A DNA stretch of 64,000 bases. Source: a virus. Below, one piece after another: positions 19,493 to 31,282 of the stretch. The notes under the pieces are model-generated. The model was given only the letters and a program-made list of their open reading frames with translations. It had not been told where the DNA came from and made no database searches. The translations under genes were made by a program, and so were the position numbers. The stretch lies in IMG/VR virus record IMGVR_UViG_3300009514_000888, positions 122,299 through 186,298 of that record. One strand, given 5' to 3'. Numbering within the stretch: position 1 is the first letter of the stretch; each line of letters opens with the position of its first letter.

Positions 19493-21115
19493 ATGAGTAA
19501 TACTAATTTTGGACGTTGGTCAAGCTATCAGATTCCTCCAGACTCTACTGGCAAGGAAATCGCCACAACCGCTGTTCTAAAGGTCACTTACGCTTCTGGA
19601 ACGATTGACTTTACCAGAGGCGATGCGGTTACCGGCGCGGCTTCTGGACTGACGGGAAAGGTTTCGGCAGTAGACGGCACCACAACGGCGGGCGACATAT
19701 ATGTTGTTGTCAATTTCTCTAGTCCTGCTGATGATTTTGATGTTGCCGAAGATATCCAGGTCAATGCGGTTACGAATGCGGTTGTTTCTTCTACGGTTCG
19801 CATGCATGCTCCGACCGGAACTGTAGTTGGGGCAAATAATCCGCTCAATGCTCAATTCGTTGGTCCCAAAGGTTCGGCGTATATTCGATTTGCTGATGGC
19901 GATCAGCAGATTGATGCAGCAGGCATATCCAGGGTTTCTCAGGCAACTCAAATTGCTCAGTACTGGAATCGTTATGATAAGAATGAGGATTTCCAGGAAA
20001 CGGTAACGGGCGGCGGTTCGACGACCCACTTGCCTAATGAGTCGGCTGTCGCGATGGACGTTGGAACCCCAAGCGGAGATGAAGTTATTTGGCAAAGCCA
20101 TCTCTATCACATCTATCAGATGGGATATTCACAGAACGTGGAGATGACTATTGCAGTTGGGGACACTGGCAAGTCCAATGTTCGCAGGCGATGGGGATAT
20201 TTTGACGCTGACAATGGAGCATTTTTCGAGCTAAACGGAACAACTTTGTCTGTGGTCCGCAGAAGCCGAGCGACTGGTAGCGTGGTAGATACAGCCGTGA
20301 ATCAGTCGTTATGGAATGGCGACCGCTTGGACGGCGGAGGCGGTATTGATAACTTATCATTAATGAATATAGATGTTAGCACGATGCTGATCTATTGGAT
20401 TGACTATCAGTGGATGGGCGCGGGGCAGCTAAGATTTGGTGTTTACGATGACCAGGGAGACAGGATCACTGTTCACAGTGTACAAAATACCAACATCCGT
20501 GCCGAACCCTGGATGACGCATCCAGCGCTGCCTGTTAGGTTTGAAATTACCAATACGAGTACAGCGGCATCTCCCAGCCGCCTAAAGGCAGTATGCTGTT
20601 CTGTTAAGACAGATGGCAACTTAGTGGAAGCTCGATCAAGAAAGACGGTTAAGTGGTCGATTGAGTCCGCTACTAATTCGAGCGTAGCCGATACGGCATT
20701 TGAGCCTATTATTTCATTTAGAAGCAAGACTACTTTGAATAGTATTGTGAACCGAAAAATCTCTATTCCTGAACTGATTTCCGTGTATGTTACTAATAAT
20801 CCCATTTTGTTTGCAATTATCAGGAATCCGACAACCTTGACTGGCGCGAGCTGGGGGTCGGTATCCACGCGATCAGCGGCAGAATTTGACGACTCGGCTA
20901 CAGTCATCTCTGGCGGAGACCAGCTGGTCACCTGGGCGCTCGACATTGGAACGCATAATCTATCGTTGCCGTCGAATTTCGGCCTTTTTTCTGAGAATCT
21001 CCACGTCCTGGGCGATGGTACGGTGGGAGACGTATTTAGTTTTGCGACGAAGTGCTTGGTATCGGCATCGACTTCAGGAGTGACGATGTTTCCGACATGG
21101 ATTGATGTGGAGTGA
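19493..21115 (+). CDS. Virion structural protein
   Basis: A 540-residue protein with RBS AGAGGA 10 nt before the ATG. The N-terminal ~90 residues contain a small beta domain, GDAVTGAASGLTGKVSAVDG, also seen in the upstream protein in related form. The central part has alternating aromatic and polar strands (SHLYHIYQMGYSQNVEM, LIYWIDYQWMGAGQLRFGVYD), resembling the lectin or jelly-roll type domain of phage structural proteins where W-x-G-x-x-R-x-G-x-x is common. The 96-bp gap before it holds no gene. Its end is coupled to the next gene. Confidence 0.75.
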   Translation: MSNTNFGRWSSYQIPPDSTGKEIATTAVLKVTYASGTIDFTRGDAVTGAASGLTGKVSAVDGTTTAGDIYVVVNFSSPADDFDVAEDIQVNAVTNAVVSSTVRMHAPTGTVVGANNPLNAQFVGPKGSAYIRFADGDQQIDAAGISRVSQATQIAQYWNRYDKNEDFQETVTGGGSTTHLPNESAVAMDVGTPSGDEVIWQSHLYHIYQMGYSQNVEMTIAVGDTGKSNVRRRWGYFDADNGAFFELNGTTLSVVRRSRATGSVVDTAVNQSLWNGDRLDGGGGIDNLSLMNIDVSTMLIYWIDYQWMGAGQLRFGVYDDQGDRITVHSVQNTNIRAEPWMTHPALPVRFEITNTSTAASPSRLKAVCCSVKTDGNLVEARSRKTVKWSIESATNSSVADTAFEPIISFRSKTTLNSIVNRKISIPELISVYVTNNPILFAIIRNPTTLTGASWGSVSTRSAAEFDDSATVISGGDQLVTWALDIGTHNLSLPSNFGLFSENLHVLGDGTVGDVFSFATKCLVSASTSGVTMFPTWIDVE

Positions 21116-21116
21116 T

Positions 21117-22094
21117 ATGTTTAGTAACATATACGCAACCTATGGAGAAGATTATTGGGAGTTACGCGATAAGGTAACGTTTGATGGAGAAAACAGCCTC
21201 ATCATTGTCAATGAAGGCGAGACGGAGATTAACATCCAGGCAGATATCTATAGCGCCTGGAAAGACTGGGCGCTTCTTCGCGACTACCTAAAATTCCGAG
21301 CTGCCCTCCGAACAACGGGCGGCGACCCCTTGCCCAGTGGCGACGCTCTTGGCGCTACTTTCTTCCTCATTAACGGTTGGCAAATCTTTCTCGATCATGC
21401 CGCTAATTTTACAGGTAACATTTTTAATGACCTGGGAGGAGATGTCTTTGTCACAGCTGCCGATCTGAAAGTTGCCACGACGACTGTATCGAACTTGATT
21501 GATAAGGTGAACCTCTCCGGCGGCGACGGTTTCTTGGCTAGCGACCGAACGACGTTGGATACGATTTTGTCCCAGACCACCGCCGACGCGATAGCGGATG
21601 CTGTTTGGGATGCCTTGGCTGTTGACTATACGGCTACGGGCGCTACTGGAGAGTTGCTGAACAACATACCTGGCGATGTGGCGGATACGGTATGGGACGA
21701 GACGGCATCCGATCATAATGCGCCTGGATCGATGGGAGAGAAACAGAATACATCCACAGTCGATCAGGATGGCATAGCGGATGCCGTTTGGGATGCTCAG
21801 AGATCAGATCATAATACGGCTGGGACATTTGGCGAAGGCGTAGCCACAAGCGGCGGTGGCGCAGGCGGCGGGTCGGTCGTGATCAATGTGGGACATGCTG
21901 ATGACAACTTTAGGATGTTAAGCCAAGATACGAATGCTGGTCCTGCCATAATCGTAGAAATGGGAGTCACGACGCCTACAAATACCTTCAAGGTTATTAA
22001 GGGCAAAACGCAGAACACTACAACTGATGAGGTAGAAACCGGAACGTCCTCTGCCAAATCAGTCAATATAGAAACTGGAACTGGAAATTCTTGA
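21117..22094 (+). CDS. Virion protein with repeated A-V-W-D motifs
   Basis: I prefer the ATG at 21117 because GGAG lies a few bases upstream. An ATG at 21105 and a TTG at 21102 are in the same frame and overlap the previous gene. The N-terminal ~110 residues (DGENSLIIVNEGETEINIQADIY, then AWKDW, then TTGGDPLPSG, then FFLINGWQI) match a domain I have seen in many phage tail and fibre proteins. Residues about 155-245 contain three repeats of the form (I/V)AD-x-VWD then D(H/Y) then G-E, probably a coiled stalk. The C-terminus is Gly-rich, then Thr-rich. Confidence 0.75.
   Translation: MFSNIYATYGEDYWELRDKVTFDGENSLIIVNEGETEINIQADIYSAWKDWALLRDYLKFRAALRTTGGDPLPSGDALGATFFLINGWQIFLDHAANFTGNIFNDLGGDVFVTAADLKVATTTVSNLIDKVNLSGGDGFLASDRTTLDTILSQTTADAIADAVWDALAVDYTATGATGELLNNIPGDVADTVWDETASDHNAPGSMGEKQNTSTVDQDGIADAVWDAQRSDHNTAGTFGEGVATSGGGAGGGSVVINVGHADDNFRMLSQDTNAGPAIIVEMGVTTPTNTFKVIKGKTQNTTTDEVETGTSSAKSVNIETGTGNS
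21583..21840 (+). repeat. Three IADAVWD...DH...GE stalk repeats
   Basis: Three tandem but unequal units encode IADAVWD, VADTVWD and IADAVWD, each followed by an Asp-His or Asp-Tyr and a Gly-Glu close. This repeat is recurrent in phage fibre-like proteins, and the copy number may vary between relatives. Confidence 0.65.
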
Positions 22095-23729: not shown

Positions 23730-25823
23730 ATGGATATGCCCTGGAAAGGATCGCAATTATCAGAAACATCTGTGCAGCGCATGAAGCAGTCCAAGCAGCG
23801 ACGAATGCAATCCAAGTTTGATTGGTCTATTGCTGAACCATATTTAGACACCATATTAGACAATGGTAGTCGAAATCGAAAAGCAAAGTTCATTACACTT
23901 CGAGAGTTTAGGGAGCTAATTGAGAGCGGTAGAAGTTTGAAAGATATTAGGCTGGATGGAATTTCCAAACACATAGTTAATTTTTACAGTTTGTTTTGCC
24001 AGGGAAAAATCAATCTTTCCAAAGCACACTTTCTTATTGAATACGAATCAGGATTAGGTCTTGATGAGATTGCTGAAAAGTATAGTATTTCGCGAGACAA
24101 CATGACGTTCTTGCGTCAGCTATATGATGTCAAAGCCAGGGGCGCAACTTTTCAACATAGAAAGGCGACCGAAACCCCTTTGACACAGAGACAAAAAGAG
24201 ATTTTATATGGTTCGATGCTTGGAGATGCTAAACAAGCATCTCTTTCGTCGGTGGCTTTTAAGCAGGGAGAAAAACAAAAAGATTATTTGTTATGGAAAT
24301 ATAGAGAGTTTGAAAATGTGGCATCCAAGAATTCTCTAAAATCATTTACTGTACTCGACCCCAGAAGTGGGCAGGAACATACTTCATGGCAGTTTTACAC
24401 TCATGCCAATACCGATGTCGAAGCTTGTGTGGACATCTTTTATCAAAACGGCAAGAAAGATATATCACAACCTATCTTGGATCAATTAACAGCCCTATCA
24501 GTTGCCGTATGGTTCATGGATGACGGAAAAACCGATTTTCATCATCGTCACATCAAAGGGAAAATGCATCAAATCAATCCAGAATGTATGTTTTGTACGG
24601 AATCTTTTTCAAAAGAAGGATGCGAATTAGCATGTCGGTGGTTCAGGGAAACATGGGGATTATCAGCTTACCTGAGGACAAGAAAGCTTTCGAATGGCAC
24701 TGGATATCGTATATGTATTAGAAGTCCTGATACAGATAAGTTTTTCGATGTTATCAGGCCATATGTGCTTCCTCTGTTTATGTACAAAATTAGTTATCGT
24801 AAATATATAGAAGAAAAGACAAATTCAGATATAGCATTAGCGGATATCATTGGCTGTCCGGTGGGCGAAGAATTTGTGTCTCTGTCTATACCAGAACAAG
24901 AAGGTCGCATTAACCAAATTGTATCCTATTGGCATCGAAGGGGTGTAAGCCGACTCTTGCCGTATCCAAAATATTTTAAGAAAGACATGAAAAGGGTTCT
25001 TCAATACGATGCGGACAGATTGTTGCATGATGATTACATTGCTTTCTGTACGCTTGGAAATAATTTCCTAATGTCTCATTTTCCAAATTTCTATGAGGCC
25101 AAAGCAAAAGGAGGGAAGTCGGCAGCCGAAATCTTCAATAATGAGAGATATTTGAGCGAAATAGTCAGGGGTATTTTGCAGGATGGCCATTTCCCACGCG
25201 GAAATAGAATTAGAAGCAAACTGAGCGACTATAGAGGCAATCGCATGGTTTCTGGCTTCATGCCATGTGTAGCCAAATCTATATATCACAGGTATTGCGA
25301 TACTGGGTTTAAGGTCTTGGATTTTTGCGCAGGTTATGGAGGCAGGCTTTTCGGGGCGATGGCGTGCGAGAAGATTGTGTCTTATACGGGCATAGAAGTT
25401 AATTACACAAGTTATGATAACTTGTGCGAGCTGCGACGATCACTTAAATTATACGGGAATGTTTGCAAGCCAGCTAACCTGATTAATGCCGATGCTATTG
25501 AAGGTATGCGACAGTTTAGTGATAAATATTTTGACTTTGCCTTTACCTCAGTTCCCTACTTTGATTGTGAAGAATATAGCGACCAATATAGCCAAAGTTT
25601 TCGTCGATATGCCAATTATGCAGAGTGGTTTGAGAAATTCCTTTTGGCATCTATAAGCGAAGCAAAAAGAGTGAGTAAAGTGGTATTATTAAATGTTGCT
25701 AACACTGGAGCGTATCAGATCGCAGAAGATTTGGCTTCTGCTCAAAGTGTTAGTCCGGTCGATAACATACGTATGTCACGCAGGGGAGGCGGAACGAAAT
25801 TTGAACCGTTGTTTTTGCTATAA
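23730..25823 (+). CDS. LAGLIDADG homing endonuclease fused to DNA methyltransferase-like domain
   Basis: A 697-residue multidomain protein. The order is a basic N-terminus, a helix-turn-helix-like segment (about 106-130, LDEIAEKYSISRDNMTFL), two LAGLIDADG-type motifs (ILYGSMLGDAK near 158-168 and LSVAVWFMDDGK near 256-267), and a C-terminal methyltransferase. Motif I is VLDFCAGYGGRLFGAMA (529-545). Motif IV reads FTSVPYFDCEEY (605-616) where [DNS]PP[YF] is expected, so the first Pro is Val. The ATG at 23736 fits AGGAG better than the one at 23730. The C-terminal part resembles phage DNA methylases. The two domains may act together or the endonuclease may be parasitic. I see no intein splice junctions. 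Confidence 0.8.
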   Translation: MDMPWKGSQLSETSVQRMKQSKQRRMQSKFDWSIAEPYLDTILDNGSRNRKAKFITLREFRELIESGRSLKDIRLDGISKHIVNFYSLFCQGKINLSKAHFLIEYESGLGLDEIAEKYSISRDNMTFLRQLYDVKARGATFQHRKATETPLTQRQKEILYGSMLGDAKQASLSSVAFKQGEKQKDYLLWKYREFENVASKNSLKSFTVLDPRSGQEHTSWQFYTHANTDVEACVDIFYQNGKKDISQPILDQLTALSVAVWFMDDGKTDFHHRHIKGKMHQINPECMFCTESFSKEGCELACRWFRETWGLSAYLRTRKLSNGTGYRICIRSPDTDKFFDVIRPYVLPLFMYKISYRKYIEEKTNSDIALADIIGCPVGEEFVSLSIPEQEGRINQIVSYWHRRGVSRLLPYPKYFKKDMKRVLQYDADRLLHDDYIAFCTLGNNFLMSHFPNFYEAKAKGGKSAAEIFNNERYLSEIVRGILQDGHFPRGNRIRSKLSDYRGNRMVSGFMPCVAKSIYHRYCDTGFKVLDFCAGYGGRLFGAMACEKIVSYTGIEVNYTSYDNLCELRRSLKLYGNVCKPANLINADAIEGMRQFSDKYFDFAFTSVPYFDCEEYSDQYSQSFRRYANYAEWFEKFLLASISEAKRVSKVVLLNVANTGAYQIAEDLASAQSVSPVDNIRMSRRGGGTKFEPLFLL

Positions 25824-26899: not shown

Positions 26900-27874
26900 G
26901 TGACTATCGTAGATGAATCCTTGGACTATCCTTTCCGGGACAAGATGATTCTTGTGGCCGGCTGTCATGGCATGGTCGGCTCTGCTGTGATGCGCAAGTT
27001 AGAGGAGCGGGGGCATCCGTCTCATTTGCTGCCCAAGATAACGAGACAAGGGTTTGACCTGTGCAATGCCCAGGATGTGGAGCGGCTATTCCAATGGCAT
27101 CGCCCGGACTATGTGGTTTTGGCGGCGGCGGTCGTCGGCGGCATTTATGCTAATCATACGAAACAGGTTCAATTCATTCGCGATAATCTCCAGATACAGA
27201 ATAACGTCATTGATGCGTGCTGTAGGCATGGCGTGCGAAAGTTGATTTTCTTGGGATCATCATGCGCGTATCCGAGGGAGTGTCCGCAGCCTATTAAGGA
27301 AGAATATTTGCTTACTGGTCCCTTGGAGGAAACTAATCAATGGTATGCCGTTGCAAAGATCGCAGGCATTAAATACGTGCATGCTTGTTTGAATGAAAAG
27401 CTATTGAACGCTTCTTGCTTGATGCCAACGAATCTCTTCGGGCCGAACGACAATTACAATTACAATACATCCCATGTTTTTCCTGCATTAATTAGGCGGA
27501 TACATGAGGCCAAGGAGTGGAAGTCTCCTATTGTTTTGTGGGGTGATGGAACTCCCAAAAGAGAATTCATGCATGTTGACGACATGGCTGACGCTATTCT
27601 CTATTTTATGGCAATGGACGAGAATATACCATTGGTTAACGTAGGTTGGGGGAAGGATATTTCTATTTGGGATTTAGCGAAATTAATGGCCAAGATTATC
27701 GGTTTTGAAGAAGAAATACTGATTAATCCCAGTTTGCCTAATGGCACGCCCCGAAAGCTTCTGGATACATCGTTTCTAAATAGCAAGGGATGGGAACCCT
27801 CGATATCGCTAAGAGAGGGGATCGCTAGCACATATGAGGATTTTGTAAAGAATTATGATACCCTGAGGAAATGA
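26900..27874 (+). CDS. fcl: GDP-L-fucose synthase (3,5-epimerase/4-reductase)
   Basis: Converts GDP-4-keto-6-deoxymannose, the Gmd product, to GDP-L-fucose. The GTG at 26900 gives 324 residues, close to the usual 310-320; an ATG at 26945 (MILVAGCHG) would be shorter. GCHGMVGSAV (21-30) is the NADPH-binding loop, VVGGI (78-82) is the Fcl-typical segment, SSCAYP (120-125) holds the catalytic Ser, and Tyr149/Lys153 (YAVAK) complete the active site. FGPNDNYNYNTSHVFPALIRR matches the Fcl substrate region. It is followed with ATGA overlap by a DxD glycosyltransferase that could use the product. Confidence 0.92.
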   Translation: MTIVDESLDYPFRDKMILVAGCHGMVGSAVMRKLEERGHPSHLLPKITRQGFDLCNAQDVERLFQWHRPDYVVLAAAVVGGIYANHTKQVQFIRDNLQIQNNVIDACCRHGVRKLIFLGSSCAYPRECPQPIKEEYLLTGPLEETNQWYAVAKIAGIKYVHACLNEKLLNASCLMPTNLFGPNDNYNYNTSHVFPALIRRIHEAKEWKSPIVLWGDGTPKREFMHVDDMADAILYFMAMDENIPLVNVGWGKDISIWDLAKLMAKIIGFEEEILINPSLPNGTPRKLLDTSFLNSKGWEPSISLREGIASTYEDFVKNYDTLRK

Positions 27875-28629
27875 GTATAAAGAAAGCTATTTATTTTGTG
27901 GCTTATGATTATCCTTTCACCCAAATGGCATCTCTTGCCTTGAGGTCTTTGAGAACGCGAGGCAAATTTCAGGGAACAGTTGTTATTTTTACGAATGCCA
28001 ACGGAGACAATCGTCGTCAAATGGAGCCGTATGCCGAAGTTGTTTATCACAGCAAATCCAAAATTATTCCCAAGGCCATGAAGTTCAAAAGTCCGAAGTA
28101 TTTCAACTTCAAGCCCTATGATTGTATCATGTATTTGGACTGCGACATGCTTGTGTTGCGCAGTTTGAATTCGTTGTTTCGATTGGTGACAGATCGCAAT
28201 GTAGTCTGTCGCAGCGCTTCAGATGGAGGAAGCATGCTGGACAACAAGACTTGTTGTTGGCGGTTTAGGGATGACAATGAGAAGCAGAAAGCCAGAAGTC
28301 GGCCATGCGTAAATTCAGGTTTTTTCTGCGTTGGTAATTGGACTTTTCACGAGATTTGCAGGCGGTGGGACAAGAGGATCAATATTCGATCTTGTATGCC
28401 TCCCAAAGGCATTTATGATCAGCCAGCATTCAATTGTGTGTTGACCAGGTACAACTATGATATTGAATACGTTAGCCCGCGCAAGATTGTTTATGCCGGG
28501 GACAAGATGGGGTCATCTGCTATTCTTTGTCATTTTGAGCATGGACAAAAACTGAAAAGAATGAACGAGTTCCTTAAGTCCTTATCCGATTTTGAGAGTC
28601 CCGAAGCGGCTTTCCAGCAGGCGCATTAG
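27871..28629 (+). CDS. GT-A glycosyltransferase (GT8-like, DxD)
   Basis: A 252-residue protein. MYLDCDMLVLRSLNSLF has the DxD metal-binding motif at Asp90/Asp92 in the hydrophobic setting of GT8 (galactosyl or glycogenin-type) enzymes. NSGFFCVG and IYDQPAFNCVLTR are the matching downstream GT8 segments (NsGv and D-q-l-N). It is translationally coupled to fcl. Its donor is unknown; GT8 members more often use UDP-sugars than GDP-fucose. The last 48 bp overlap the convergent gene on the minus strand. Confidence 0.75.
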   Translation: MSIKKAIYFVAYDYPFTQMASLALRSLRTRGKFQGTVVIFTNANGDNRRQMEPYAEVVYHSKSKIIPKAMKFKSPKYFNFKPYDCIMYLDCDMLVLRSLNSLFRLVTDRNVVCRSASDGGSMLDNKTCCWRFRDDNEKQKARSRPCVNSGFFCVGNWTFHEICRRWDKRINIRSCMPPKGIYDQPAFNCVLTRYNYDIEYVSPRKIVYAGDKMGSSAILCHFEHGQKLKRMNEFLKSLSDFESPEAAFQQAH

Positions 28630-28988: not shown

Positions 28989-29366
28989 ATGATTGTCAAA
29001 AGGGATGATGATGGCAAGAAAAAACAGGCTGCATCCTCTGATCAACCAGATGCGGCGGGGAAACCTCAACTGACGGCTGGCCAGCTGAATGTCTTAAAGC
29101 AGAGGTGCGAACATGACAATATTGAGTTCTATTACAGGGCGACAGATCGGCTGAAGCATTACATTATCCAAGGGCATCCTATTACCGATCAGCTGCCCGA
29201 TCTTATCAAATCTGCCTTACTAGCAGGCAAGGGCATCGCTGTGACGAGAGAGATGATCTATCGATGGATATCTGGCAGCCTTGATCGACGAAATGCTTTC
29301 ATCTTAGAGCATGCAGAGATTCGGGTTGAGAATGATCCCATGACCGTCATTAGGAAATTTTCATGA
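28989..29366 (+). CDS. Hypothetical protein, helical
   Basis: A 125-residue protein with GGAGGA ahead of the ATG. The first 30 residues are Lys/Asp/Gln-rich and likely disordered; the rest looks helical and soluble. The stop overlaps the ATG of the epimerase-intein gene (ATGA). No family was recognised. Confidence 0.6.
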   Translation: MIVKRDDDGKKKQAASSDQPDAAGKPQLTAGQLNVLKQRCEHDNIEFYYRATDRLKHYIIQGHPITDQLPDLIKSALLAGKGIAVTREMIYRWISGSLDRRNAFILEHAEIRVENDPMTVIRKFS

Positions 29367-31282
29367 CTAGATGTCTGGTAACAGGGGGAGCTGGGTTTAT
29401 AGGATCGAACCTGGTGGATAGACTCGTGTCTCTCGATGAGCAGGTCGTGGTTATTGACAATCTTTCGAGCGGTCATCTAGAGAACATTCAGTCCAGCATG
29501 AGGGAGGGCAATGTGCAGTTTGTGGAGATAGACATTGCTAACAGGGAAGAGTTGGAAACCTATATGATGGGAGAGGAGTTTGACGCCATCTTCCATCTGG
29601 CGGCTGTTCCGCGCGTTCAGTTTTCCATCGCCAATCCGCACCTGACCAATGAAACCAATATTACAGGGACGCTTAATATGTTATTGGCGGCTAAACGGCA
29701 AGGCATTCAAAGGTTTGTCTATTCCGCCAGCTCATCGGCCTATGGTAATCAGGACGATCTTCCCTTGACTGAGGACATGAAGCCCAACCCCATGTCCCCA
29801 TATGCGTTACAGAAGTTGGCAGGCGAACAGTATGCGAAGATGTTTCATGATTTGTATGGCATGGAGACGGTATCGTTACGGTATTTCAACGTCTATGGAA
29901 AGAAGCAAGACCCAGAAGGCGCATATGCGACTTTGGTTCCCAAATTCATCAATCGCTTGATGGACGGAAAGACGGCGGTGATCAATGGTGACGGCGAACA
30001 AACTCGTGACTTCTGCATGGGAGCTGGCAGTAGAGTTTTGATGGGAGATTTGACCTGGAAGCCTATAGAGGACATTAGGCAAGGTGACCGTGTTGTTTCA
30101 TTTGATGAAAAGCCTACTAATAGAAAGAGAAATTTTAGGGTTGAAACAGTAGAGCATACTACTTCATATATATCCACAAATGTGGTTAAGATAAAAACAG
30201 AAAACCGGGATATTGTTTGCACGAATAATCATCCCTGGTTGACTAATAAGTCTGTTTTTAGAGATGCAAGATGGCTGTCAGAGGCATTAAAGAGGGGAAG
30301 TCCAGGCATTAAGTCTTTTAGCACTCCTGTGTCTTATGAAGAATCCCAATGTTTTAGAGACGGGTATCATAGTTACAGGGATCATGGATCATCTCATTAT
30401 TCGACAGGATTAGCAGTTACAGATATGTCTTTTGTGGACAGGTTTGTATCGCATGAAAATGGCGAACACTGGAATCGGTATGAAAGATCGCATTCGTATT
30501 CAGGAAGTCGAACATTACAACCAGGTAAAAAAGAAGTTTTGGATTATCATTTGAGTTTGATTGATAATGCCGATTGGAGTAACGAAGAATTTTGCAGAGG
30601 TTGGTTGAGTGGGGTTTTCGATTCAGAAGGAGCGGTTTCCAAATGGAGTCTTAGACTAAGTAATAAAGACGAGAGAGTATGTGATCGTATTCGTTATGTA
30701 TTGAATATGTTTGATTTTGATTGGTCAGAGATGATGAGGAAGGATACTTTGGTTATCTTTTCAATATTAGGAGGTTTGCCAGAGCAGGTTAGATTTTTTG
30801 CCTCCTTTAAGCCAGCTGTAGCTCGCAAACCTGACATGGATGGTCTAGAAGTGAAAGGACATATTGAAAACATAGTTGATATACATCCAACATTATGTCA
30901 AAGAGTTTATAATTTACAGATATCTAATCATAAGACATTCATAGTTGATGGCTTGTTGTGTCACAATACATCTGTCGAAGATGTAGTAGAAGCGAATATT
31001 CTGGCTGCTTGGCCAGATAACGAGTTAGCGTTTGGCAAGACTTTCAATATAGGAGCAGGTCACAATCGTTCGGTCAATGAAGTAGCCCAGGTGATTTGCG
31101 CTGCTGTCGGCGCGGACACGAGTTTGGTCGAGCATGGCCCGGCAGTAATTGAGCCGAAAGATACGTTGGCGAGTATTGAACAAGCCAGTCGATTATTGAG
31201 CTGGGAGCCGATGGTGGATTTCTCGGAAGGTTTAAGCAGGACAGTAGAATACTATATGGAGCAGAAGGAGCAGAGGGCATGA
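29363..31282 (+). CDS. NDP-sugar epimerase (extended SDR) interrupted by an intein
   Basis: A 639-residue precursor. Removing residues 218-535 leaves a 321-residue extended SDR of normal size. The extein shows GGAGFIG (8-14), SASSSAYG, YALQK as the catalytic Tyr-x-x-x-Lys and RYFNVYG. The two exteins join as GEQTRDF/TSVEDVVEAN, which matches the conserved GD-x-x-RDF-x-x-VeDv of UDP-glucose 4-epimerase-like enzymes, so the insertion lies in an active-site loop. An UDP-glucose/GlcNAc 4-epimerase or similar activity is likely. It is translationally coupled to the genes before and after it. Confidence 0.9.
   Translation: MTRCLVTGGAGFIGSNLVDRLVSLDEQVVVIDNLSSGHLENIQSSMREGNVQFVEIDIANREELETYMMGEEFDAIFHLAAVPRVQFSIANPHLTNETNITGTLNMLLAAKRQGIQRFVYSASSSAYGNQDDLPLTEDMKPNPMSPYALQKLAGEQYAKMFHDLYGMETVSLRYFNVYGKKQDPEGAYATLVPKFINRLMDGKTAVINGDGEQTRDFCMGAGSRVLMGDLTWKPIEDIRQGDRVVSFDEKPTNRKRNFRVETVEHTTSYISTNVVKIKTENRDIVCTNNHPWLTNKSVFRDARWLSEALKRGSPGIKSFSTPVSYEESQCFRDGYHSYRDHGSSHYSTGLAVTDMSFVDRFVSHENGEHWNRYERSHSYSGSRTLQPGKKEVLDYHLSLIDNADWSNEEFCRGWLSGVFDSEGAVSKWSLRLSNKDERVCDRIRYVLNMFDFDWSEMMRKDTLVIFSILGGLPEQVRFFASFKPAVARKPDMDGLEVKGHIENIVDIHPTLCQRVYNLQISNHKTFIVDGLLCHNTSVEDVVEANILAAWPDNELAFGKTFNIGAGHNRSVNEVAQVICAAVGADTSLVEHGPAVIEPKDTLASIEQASRLLSWEPMVDFSEGLSRTVEYYMEQKEQRA
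30014..30967 (+). other. Intein (318 residues) with splicing blocks and one LAGLIDADG-like motif
   Basis: Begins at Cys (TGC at 30014) with CMGAGSRVLMGDLTWKPIED (block A). Block B is IVCTNNHPWL, with the conserved T-x-x-H. A GWLSGVFDSEGAVS segment is the LAGLIDADG-like block C. Block F/G is VYNLQISNHKTFIVDG followed by LLCHN. The last two residues are His-Asn and the +1 extein residue is Thr, all canonical for class 1 splicing. A second LAGLIDADG motif is not obvious, so the endonuclease may be inactive or divergent. Confidence 0.93.

What the first reader, a model, noticed from the sequence alone, without database searches (positions are those of the whole stretch)
29363..31282. Intein inside a nucleotide-sugar epimerase of a phage
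The precursor has all main splicing blocks: Cys at the start, T-x-x-H in block B, and His-Asn at the end with a Thr +1. Removing residues 218-535 restores a conserved SDR stretch (TRDF/TSVEDVV). Phage inteins are mostly in replication, terminase or nucleotide-metabolism enzymes. I know of few in sugar epimerases, so host gene and insertion site look unusual. The presence of the intein in an active-site loop means the enzyme depends on splicing.
Basis: partly seen in the sequence, partly recalled or inferred. Interest (0 to 1): 0.85.

Follow-up and report, generated by a model that had tools for sequence, protein, structure and literature searches.

The report
Intein in a phage sugar-nucleotide epimerase
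A large uncultured phage carries a self-excising protein insert (an intein) inside a sugar-activating enzyme, a host gene in which no intein turned up in the collections and papers searched here; the element is of an ordinary kind, but its host gene is new and the phage holds at least eight more inteins.

Summary
Confirmed. The 639-aa ORF at 29363-31282 is an extended-SDR epimerase (closest solved relatives WbpP/WbgU) interrupted after ...GDGEQTRDF by a 318-aa class 1 intein (nt 30014-30967; Cys1, TNNH block B, ...CHN, Thr+1). Joining the flanks gives a 321-aa protein that aligns to WbpP without a gap at the junction, and Pfam Epimerase coverage rises from positions 2-212 to 2-240 of 240. The closest intein found lies in a helicase-like protein of Virus Rctr197k (27% identity over most of the intein). 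That one has two LAGLIDADG motifs; ours keeps one and has a shortened, degenerate first motif. I therefore infer a splicing-competent intein whose endonuclease is probably decayed. Its low GC3 (0.31 against 0.58/0.50 in the exteins) suggests foreign origin. Junction-pattern scans of IMG/VR and 84,980 prokaryote genomes, and phage and plasmid tblastn, found no other intein at this site; divergent alleles could be missed. It is a new insertion site for a known kind of element. The same 186-kb record holds at least eight more inteins. One, in ribonucleotide reductase, has Gly instead of a nucleophile at +1, and four other viral contigs share that junction. That side finding may matter more than the epimerase.

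The parts
29363..31282 (+). Epimerase precursor ORF, 639 aa, intein included
29363..30013 (+). N-extein (217 aa): Rossmann GGAGFIG, SASSSAYG...SPYALQK (Ser/Tyr-x3-Lys), ends GDGEQTRDF
   Evidence: Pfam Epimerase 5.2e-57; WbpP alignment
30014..30967 (+). Class 1 intein, 318 aa
   Evidence: NF038136 E=3.5e-7 over 1-318; PF14890 4.1e-6; Rctr197k intein z=13.8; GC3 0.31 vs 0.58/0.50
30014..30052 (+). Block A, CMGAGSRVLMGDL, nucleophile Cys1
   Evidence: sequence; aligned with CLPGEAPVWMADM of Rctr197k
30221..30232 (+). Block B T-N-N-H
   Evidence: sequence; aligned with TEDH of Rctr197k and with the TGNH of the Spl DnaX mini-intein 7cfv
30335..30364 (+). Probable remnant of the first LAGLIDADG motif (YEESQCF----RDG)
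   Evidence: aligned with YKRGYLHGLIDGDG of the Rctr197k intein; 4-residue deletion, Gly packing residues lost
30602..30631 (+). Remaining LAGLIDADG motif (WLSGVFDSEG)
   Evidence: PF14528 at intein 193-234; aligned with FLAGVYDAEG
30905..30967 (+). Blocks F and G, VYNLQISNHKTFIVDGLLCHN, terminal His-Asn
   Evidence: sequence; Spl DnaX mini-intein alignment; PF14890
30968..31279 (+). C-extein (104 aa), Thr+1, TSVEDVVEANILAA...
   Evidence: contiguous with the N-extein in 1sb8, 6dnt and phage ACG-2014f
26900..27874 (+). Neighbour: GDP-L-fucose synthase-like SDR (no intein)
   Evidence: NF047922 E=2e-115
27871..28629 (+). Neighbour: family 8 glycosyltransferase-like
   Evidence: PF01501 4e-6

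Best explanation
A class 1 cis-splicing intein inserted into a phage-encoded UDP-sugar epimerase of the WbpP/GalE type, in the strongly conserved GDGxxTRDF|T stretch. Inferred mechanism: Cys1 makes a thioester with the N-extein (helped by the block B TxxH), Thr+1 attacks it to give the branched ester, Asn535 cyclises with help from His534 and frees the intein, and an O-N shift gives an ordinary peptide bond, leaving a 321-aa intact epimerase. The element probably arrived by homing with a two-motif LAGLIDADG endonuclease. One motif is now degenerate, so it is probably no longer mobile by itself and is kept because precise loss is rare and splicing makes it nearly neutral. Shown: the intact ORF, all splicing residues, exact extein restoration, homology to inteins, AT-rich composition. 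Inferred: splicing, loss of endonuclease activity, the enzyme's substrate.
For: All catalytic residues present. Family and relative matches beyond chance. Extein restored to full family length and ungapped across the junction with WbpP and with intein-free phage epimerases. Haloarchaeal epimerases match both exteins in about 900 nt of DNA, i.e. an empty site. First LAGLIDADG motif lost relative to Rctr197k. Intein GC 0.38 and GC3 0.31 against extein GC3 0.58/0.50 and window GC 0.47.
Against: No experiment. Pfam Intein_splicing stays below its curated cut-off (27.1 vs 35.8 bits), and the single-sequence structure model was useless (pLDDT 31.5), so the Hint fold rests on sequence alone. The call of a decayed endonuclease rests on one pairwise comparison at 27% identity.
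Confidence: 0.86

Rival explanations
1. The intein is still mobile: the remaining LAGLIDADG motif works (as a dimer, or the first motif is divergent but functional) and cuts intein-less epimerase genes of co-infecting phages.
For: One LAGLIDADG motif is well kept (PF14528); about 200 aa of non-splicing sequence persist; foreign composition suggests recent arrival.
Against: The first motif lacks the Gly-x-x-x-Gly helix core and has a 4-residue gap against Rctr197k; no second genome with this allele was found, so no sign of spread.
Confidence: 0.2
2. Splicing is conditional and works as a post-translational switch for the epimerase (timing of surface or capsid sugar modification).
For: Site directly after the conserved R-D-F motif, so the precursor should be inactive; sugar genes cluster nearby.
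Against: No sequence feature points to regulation; inteins prefer conserved active-site sites anyway; canonical residues throughout suggest fast splicing.
Confidence: 0.06
3. The insert is a non-splicing Hint-type domain or a decayed intein that leaves the epimerase broken.
For: Weak Pfam score; endonuclease part decayed.
Against: Every splicing residue and the +1 nucleophile are intact, the exteins carry all epimerase motifs, and there is no frameshift or stop.
Confidence: 0.05

Closest known systems
Intein of Virus Rctr197k (KX853510.1, record 20420-21307; annotated 'radical SAM protein-like', the extein reads as a helicase)
   Same: Closest found: 26-27% identity over most of the intein, Cys1, same block layout, LAGLIDADG endonuclease
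   Different: 351 aa with two intact LAGLIDADG motifs, ends K-N with Cys+1, different host gene
Intein of the Rv2578c-family radical SAM proteins (NCBIfam NF038136)
   Same: Full-length profile match to intein residues 1-318
   Different: Different host protein; well below that model's whole-protein cut-off because the extein is unrelated
Mycobacteriophage inteins in TerL, portal, ThyX, methylases (Kelley et al. 2016, PMC5050341)
   Same: Phage-borne splicing elements in conserved, often catalytic stretches
   Different: Host genes there are packaging and nucleic-acid enzymes; the text of that survey does not contain the word epimerase
WbpP / WbgU / TviC UDP-HexNAc(A) 4-epimerases (1sb8, 3ru9, 10ke)
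   Same: Whole spliced extein aligns, E=1e-65 with 1sb8
   Different: No intein; Cys where the phage enzyme has Thr+1; phage protein far below equivalog cut-offs (TviC 206 of 760, GalE 185 of 262 bits), so substrate not settled

Membership tests
Class 1 intein | N-terminal nucleophile Cys/Ser at position 1 | tested here: met
   Cys at residue 218
Class 1 intein | Block B TxxH | tested here: met
   TNNH, nt 30221-30232
Class 1 intein | Penultimate His and terminal Asn | tested here: met
   CHN at 533-535
Class 1 intein | Cys/Ser/Thr at +1 | tested here: met
   Thr536
Class 1 intein | In-frame insertion whose removal restores a conserved protein | tested here: met
   Pfam and PDB alignments across the junction
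Class 1 intein | Homology to known inteins | tested here: met
   NF038136, Rctr197k; Pfam Intein_splicing significant but under its curated cut-off
Class 1 intein | Splicing activity | not testable with these tools
   needs expression
Class 1 intein | Hint (horseshoe) fold | tested here: inconclusive
   AlphaFold2 without relatives gave pLDDT 31.5
LAGLIDADG homing endonuclease, two-motif type | Two LAGLIDADG helices with acidic residues | tested here: not met
   One clear motif; the other degenerate
Extended-SDR UDP-sugar 4-epimerase (WbpP/GalE type) | GxxGxxG, Ser and YxxxK, full-length family match | tested here: met
   motifs in sequence
WbpP/TviC or GalE equivalog | Score above curated equivalog cut-off | tested here: not met
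   206.1 of 760 and 184.6 of 262.3 bits

The most novel reading that the evidence does not exclude
The epimerase intein is a conditional switch: its splicing times synthesis of an activated sugar during infection. It would be one of a set of nine or more inteins in this phage that together put packaging, nucleotide supply and sugar synthesis under post-translational control.
Probability: 0.04. Interest if true: 0.75.

Novelty: new member of a known kind. Interest (0 to 1): 0.4.

Why it matters
It adds a sugar-nucleotide epimerase, an accessory rather than core replication or packaging gene, to the genes inteins can occupy, at a conserved SDR motif. It also led to an intein-dense phage genome and to a recurrent ribonucleotide reductase intein without a +1 nucleophile, which would test how splicing works without the canonical transesterification.

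Tried and rejected
(1) Close relatives of the intein, the spliced epimerase and the RNR in IMG/VR: none; single-protein queries reach only close relatives. (2) N-junction DNA patterns in IMG/VR: none. The pattern wrongly required Gly at intein position 4 and would miss this very allele; one search corrects it. (3) N-junction pattern in 84,980 genomes: four matches, all in unrelated or wrong frames. (4) C-junction pattern in IMG/VR: 15 matches, none an intein. (5) Structure prediction of the intein alone: unusable, so no fold search. (6) Campylobacter and PAU phage epimerases, which matched only partly, are ordinary-length genes. (7) Window 23730-25823, with a LAGLIDADG domain, was considered as a second intein in the window and rejected: it is a LAGLIDADG/methyltransferase-like fusion without splicing blocks. 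(8) All inteins of the genome as copies of one element: rejected, no significant pairwise similarity with the epimerase intein beyond the splicing blocks.

Full report
OBSERVATION. The ORF at 29363-31282 (+) is intact and 639 aa long. Residues 218-535 form the proposed insert: CMGAGSRVLMGDL... to ...VYNLQISNHKTFIVDGLLCHN, followed by Thr536; the intein is nt 30014-30967, 318 aa, and the joined flanks give 321 aa.

IT IS AN INTEIN. NCBIfam NF038136 (an intein-containing radical SAM family) matches the insert from its first to its last residue, E=3.5e-7. Pfam Intein_splicing matches at 4.1e-6, though under its curated cut-off. Phage tblastn brings Virus Rctr197k at 8e-8; aligned globally the two inteins score 13.8 SD above shuffled sequence. 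A solved mini-intein (Spl DnaX, 7cfv) aligns weakly in blocks A/B and F/G. Cys1, TNNH, His-Asn and Thr+1 are the class 1 set.

HOST GENE AND SITE. Without the insert, Pfam Epimerase goes from 193.5 bits over positions 2-212 to 214.4 bits over 2-240 of 240. The spliced protein aligns with WbpP (1sb8, E=1.3e-65), a capsule epimerase (10ke) and WbgU, with no gap at the junction...INGDGEQTRDF|TSVEDVVEAN in the phage...[21 protein letters not shown] in WbpP. Intein-free phage epimerases (Synechococcus phage ACG-2014f, phage PAU) are contiguous there, and haloarchaeal epimerases match both exteins within about 900 nt. The site directly follows the R-D-[FY] motif; from general knowledge of this family (not tested here) that Arg contacts the nucleotide's phosphates, so an unspliced precursor should be inactive. 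Equivalog cut-offs are not reached, so which UDP-sugar it uses is open. Nearby are a GDP-fucose synthase-like gene, a GT8-like gene, and at the window's start further SDR and GDP-mannose-dehydratase-like genes and a sulfotransferase-like gene.

STATE OF THE ENDONUCLEASE. The Rctr197k intein has two LAGLIDADG motifs (RGYLHGLIDGDG and RGFLAGVYDAEG). The epimerase intein keeps the second (RGWLSGVFDSEG) but at the first reads YEESQCF----RDGYHS. I infer that homing activity is probably lost, the 'old resident' stage of the usual homing cycle (general knowledge). Composition still marks it as foreign: GC 0.38 against about 0.49 in the exteins; GC3 0.31 against 0.58 and 0.50.

HOW RARE. No other intein at this site was found by N-junction patterns in IMG/VR, the same pattern in 84,980 prokaryote genomes (its four matches are chance), or a C-junction pattern in IMG/VR (none an intein). 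Of 393 phage records with an epimerase match, 342 have one place covering at least 80% of the spliced query. No phage or plasmid record matched at least 80% of the precursor. Held papers with 'intein' and 'nucleotide sugar epimerase': none; those with inteins, exteins and epimerase did not appear on topic from titles and abstracts (not read in full). These searches miss divergent junctions, and most subscription literature is not held, so 'first of its kind' is likely, not proved.

THE GENOME AROUND IT. The window is the last 64 kb of a 186,298-bp virus record. Outside the window the record has at least eight more inteins: one in an AAA ATPase, one in NrdA-like RNR, two in the terminase, two in the portal, one Ala1 intein in a prohead-protease-like protein, and a split intein in an IMP dehydrogenase/GMP reductase gene with a NUMOD3 endonuclease gene between the halves. 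The six contiguous ones whose composition was measured are more AT-rich than the rest of their ORFs. This is not unique: the huge phage LR745208 (485 kb) has about as many, mostly in replication proteins and none seen in an epimerase.

SIDE FINDING. The RNR intein sits VNQ|C...AHN|GGRRKG. Its closest solved relative (5im3) reads NQGGKRKG, so the +1 residue really is Gly. Four other viral contigs have HN|GGKRKGA; in two of them the whole intein with VNQ|C is in frame and clearly homologous, in one only the C-terminal part is held and homologous, and in one only a short C-terminal part, possibly of a split intein, is in frame. A class 1 mechanism needs a +1 Cys, Ser or Thr. Either these splice by direct aminolysis after Asn cyclisation (reported, from memory, for some bacterial intein-like domains) or the RNR works as two chains.

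VERDICT. A real intein in an unusual gene: a new member of a known kind, interest 0.4.

Noticed in passing
Genome record C1:45786-46769 (L016 1787-2770 region); also L057, L059, L060, L061: RNR (NrdA) intein with intact Cys1 and His-Asn but Gly at +1 (VNQ|C...HN|GG[KR]RKGA); the HN|GG junction recurs in four other viral contigs, three of them clearly homologous. Splicing without a +1 nucleophile, or a two-chain RNR.
   Followed up: partly
Genome record C1:99613-102369 (L018, L028): IMP dehydrogenase/GMP reductase gene broken into two ORFs ending and starting in intein halves, with a NUMOD3 endonuclease ORF between: a fractured gene with a split intein.
   Followed up: partly
Genome record C1:73388-80122: Prohead-protease-like 2245-aa frame with an intein that starts with Ala (STSMG|ASRGHDLVTM...ATHN|CSVEGSVCSIC), so class 2 or class 3.
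   Followed up: partly
Genome record C1:53121-55874 and 68337-70049: Terminase and portal each carry two inteins; one portal intein ends His-Gln before Cys+1 and one terminase intein ends Ser-Asn.
   Followed up: partly
window 23730-25823: 697-aa protein joining a LAGLIDADG endonuclease to a methyltransferase-like domain, GC3 0.37; not an intein.
   Followed up: partly
LR745208.1 (L051-L056): 485-kb huge phage with roughly eight or nine inteins, in DNA polymerase I (two), DnaB-like, SNF2-like, UvrD-like, DnaX-like and RecD-like proteins, plus a 320-aa frame with an intein C-terminal half.
   Followed up: partly
KX853510.1 19211-22480 (L002): Gene annotated 'radical SAM protein-like' appears from its sequence to be a helicase; the annotation may come from similarity of its intein to the Rv2578c radical SAM intein.
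   Followed up: no
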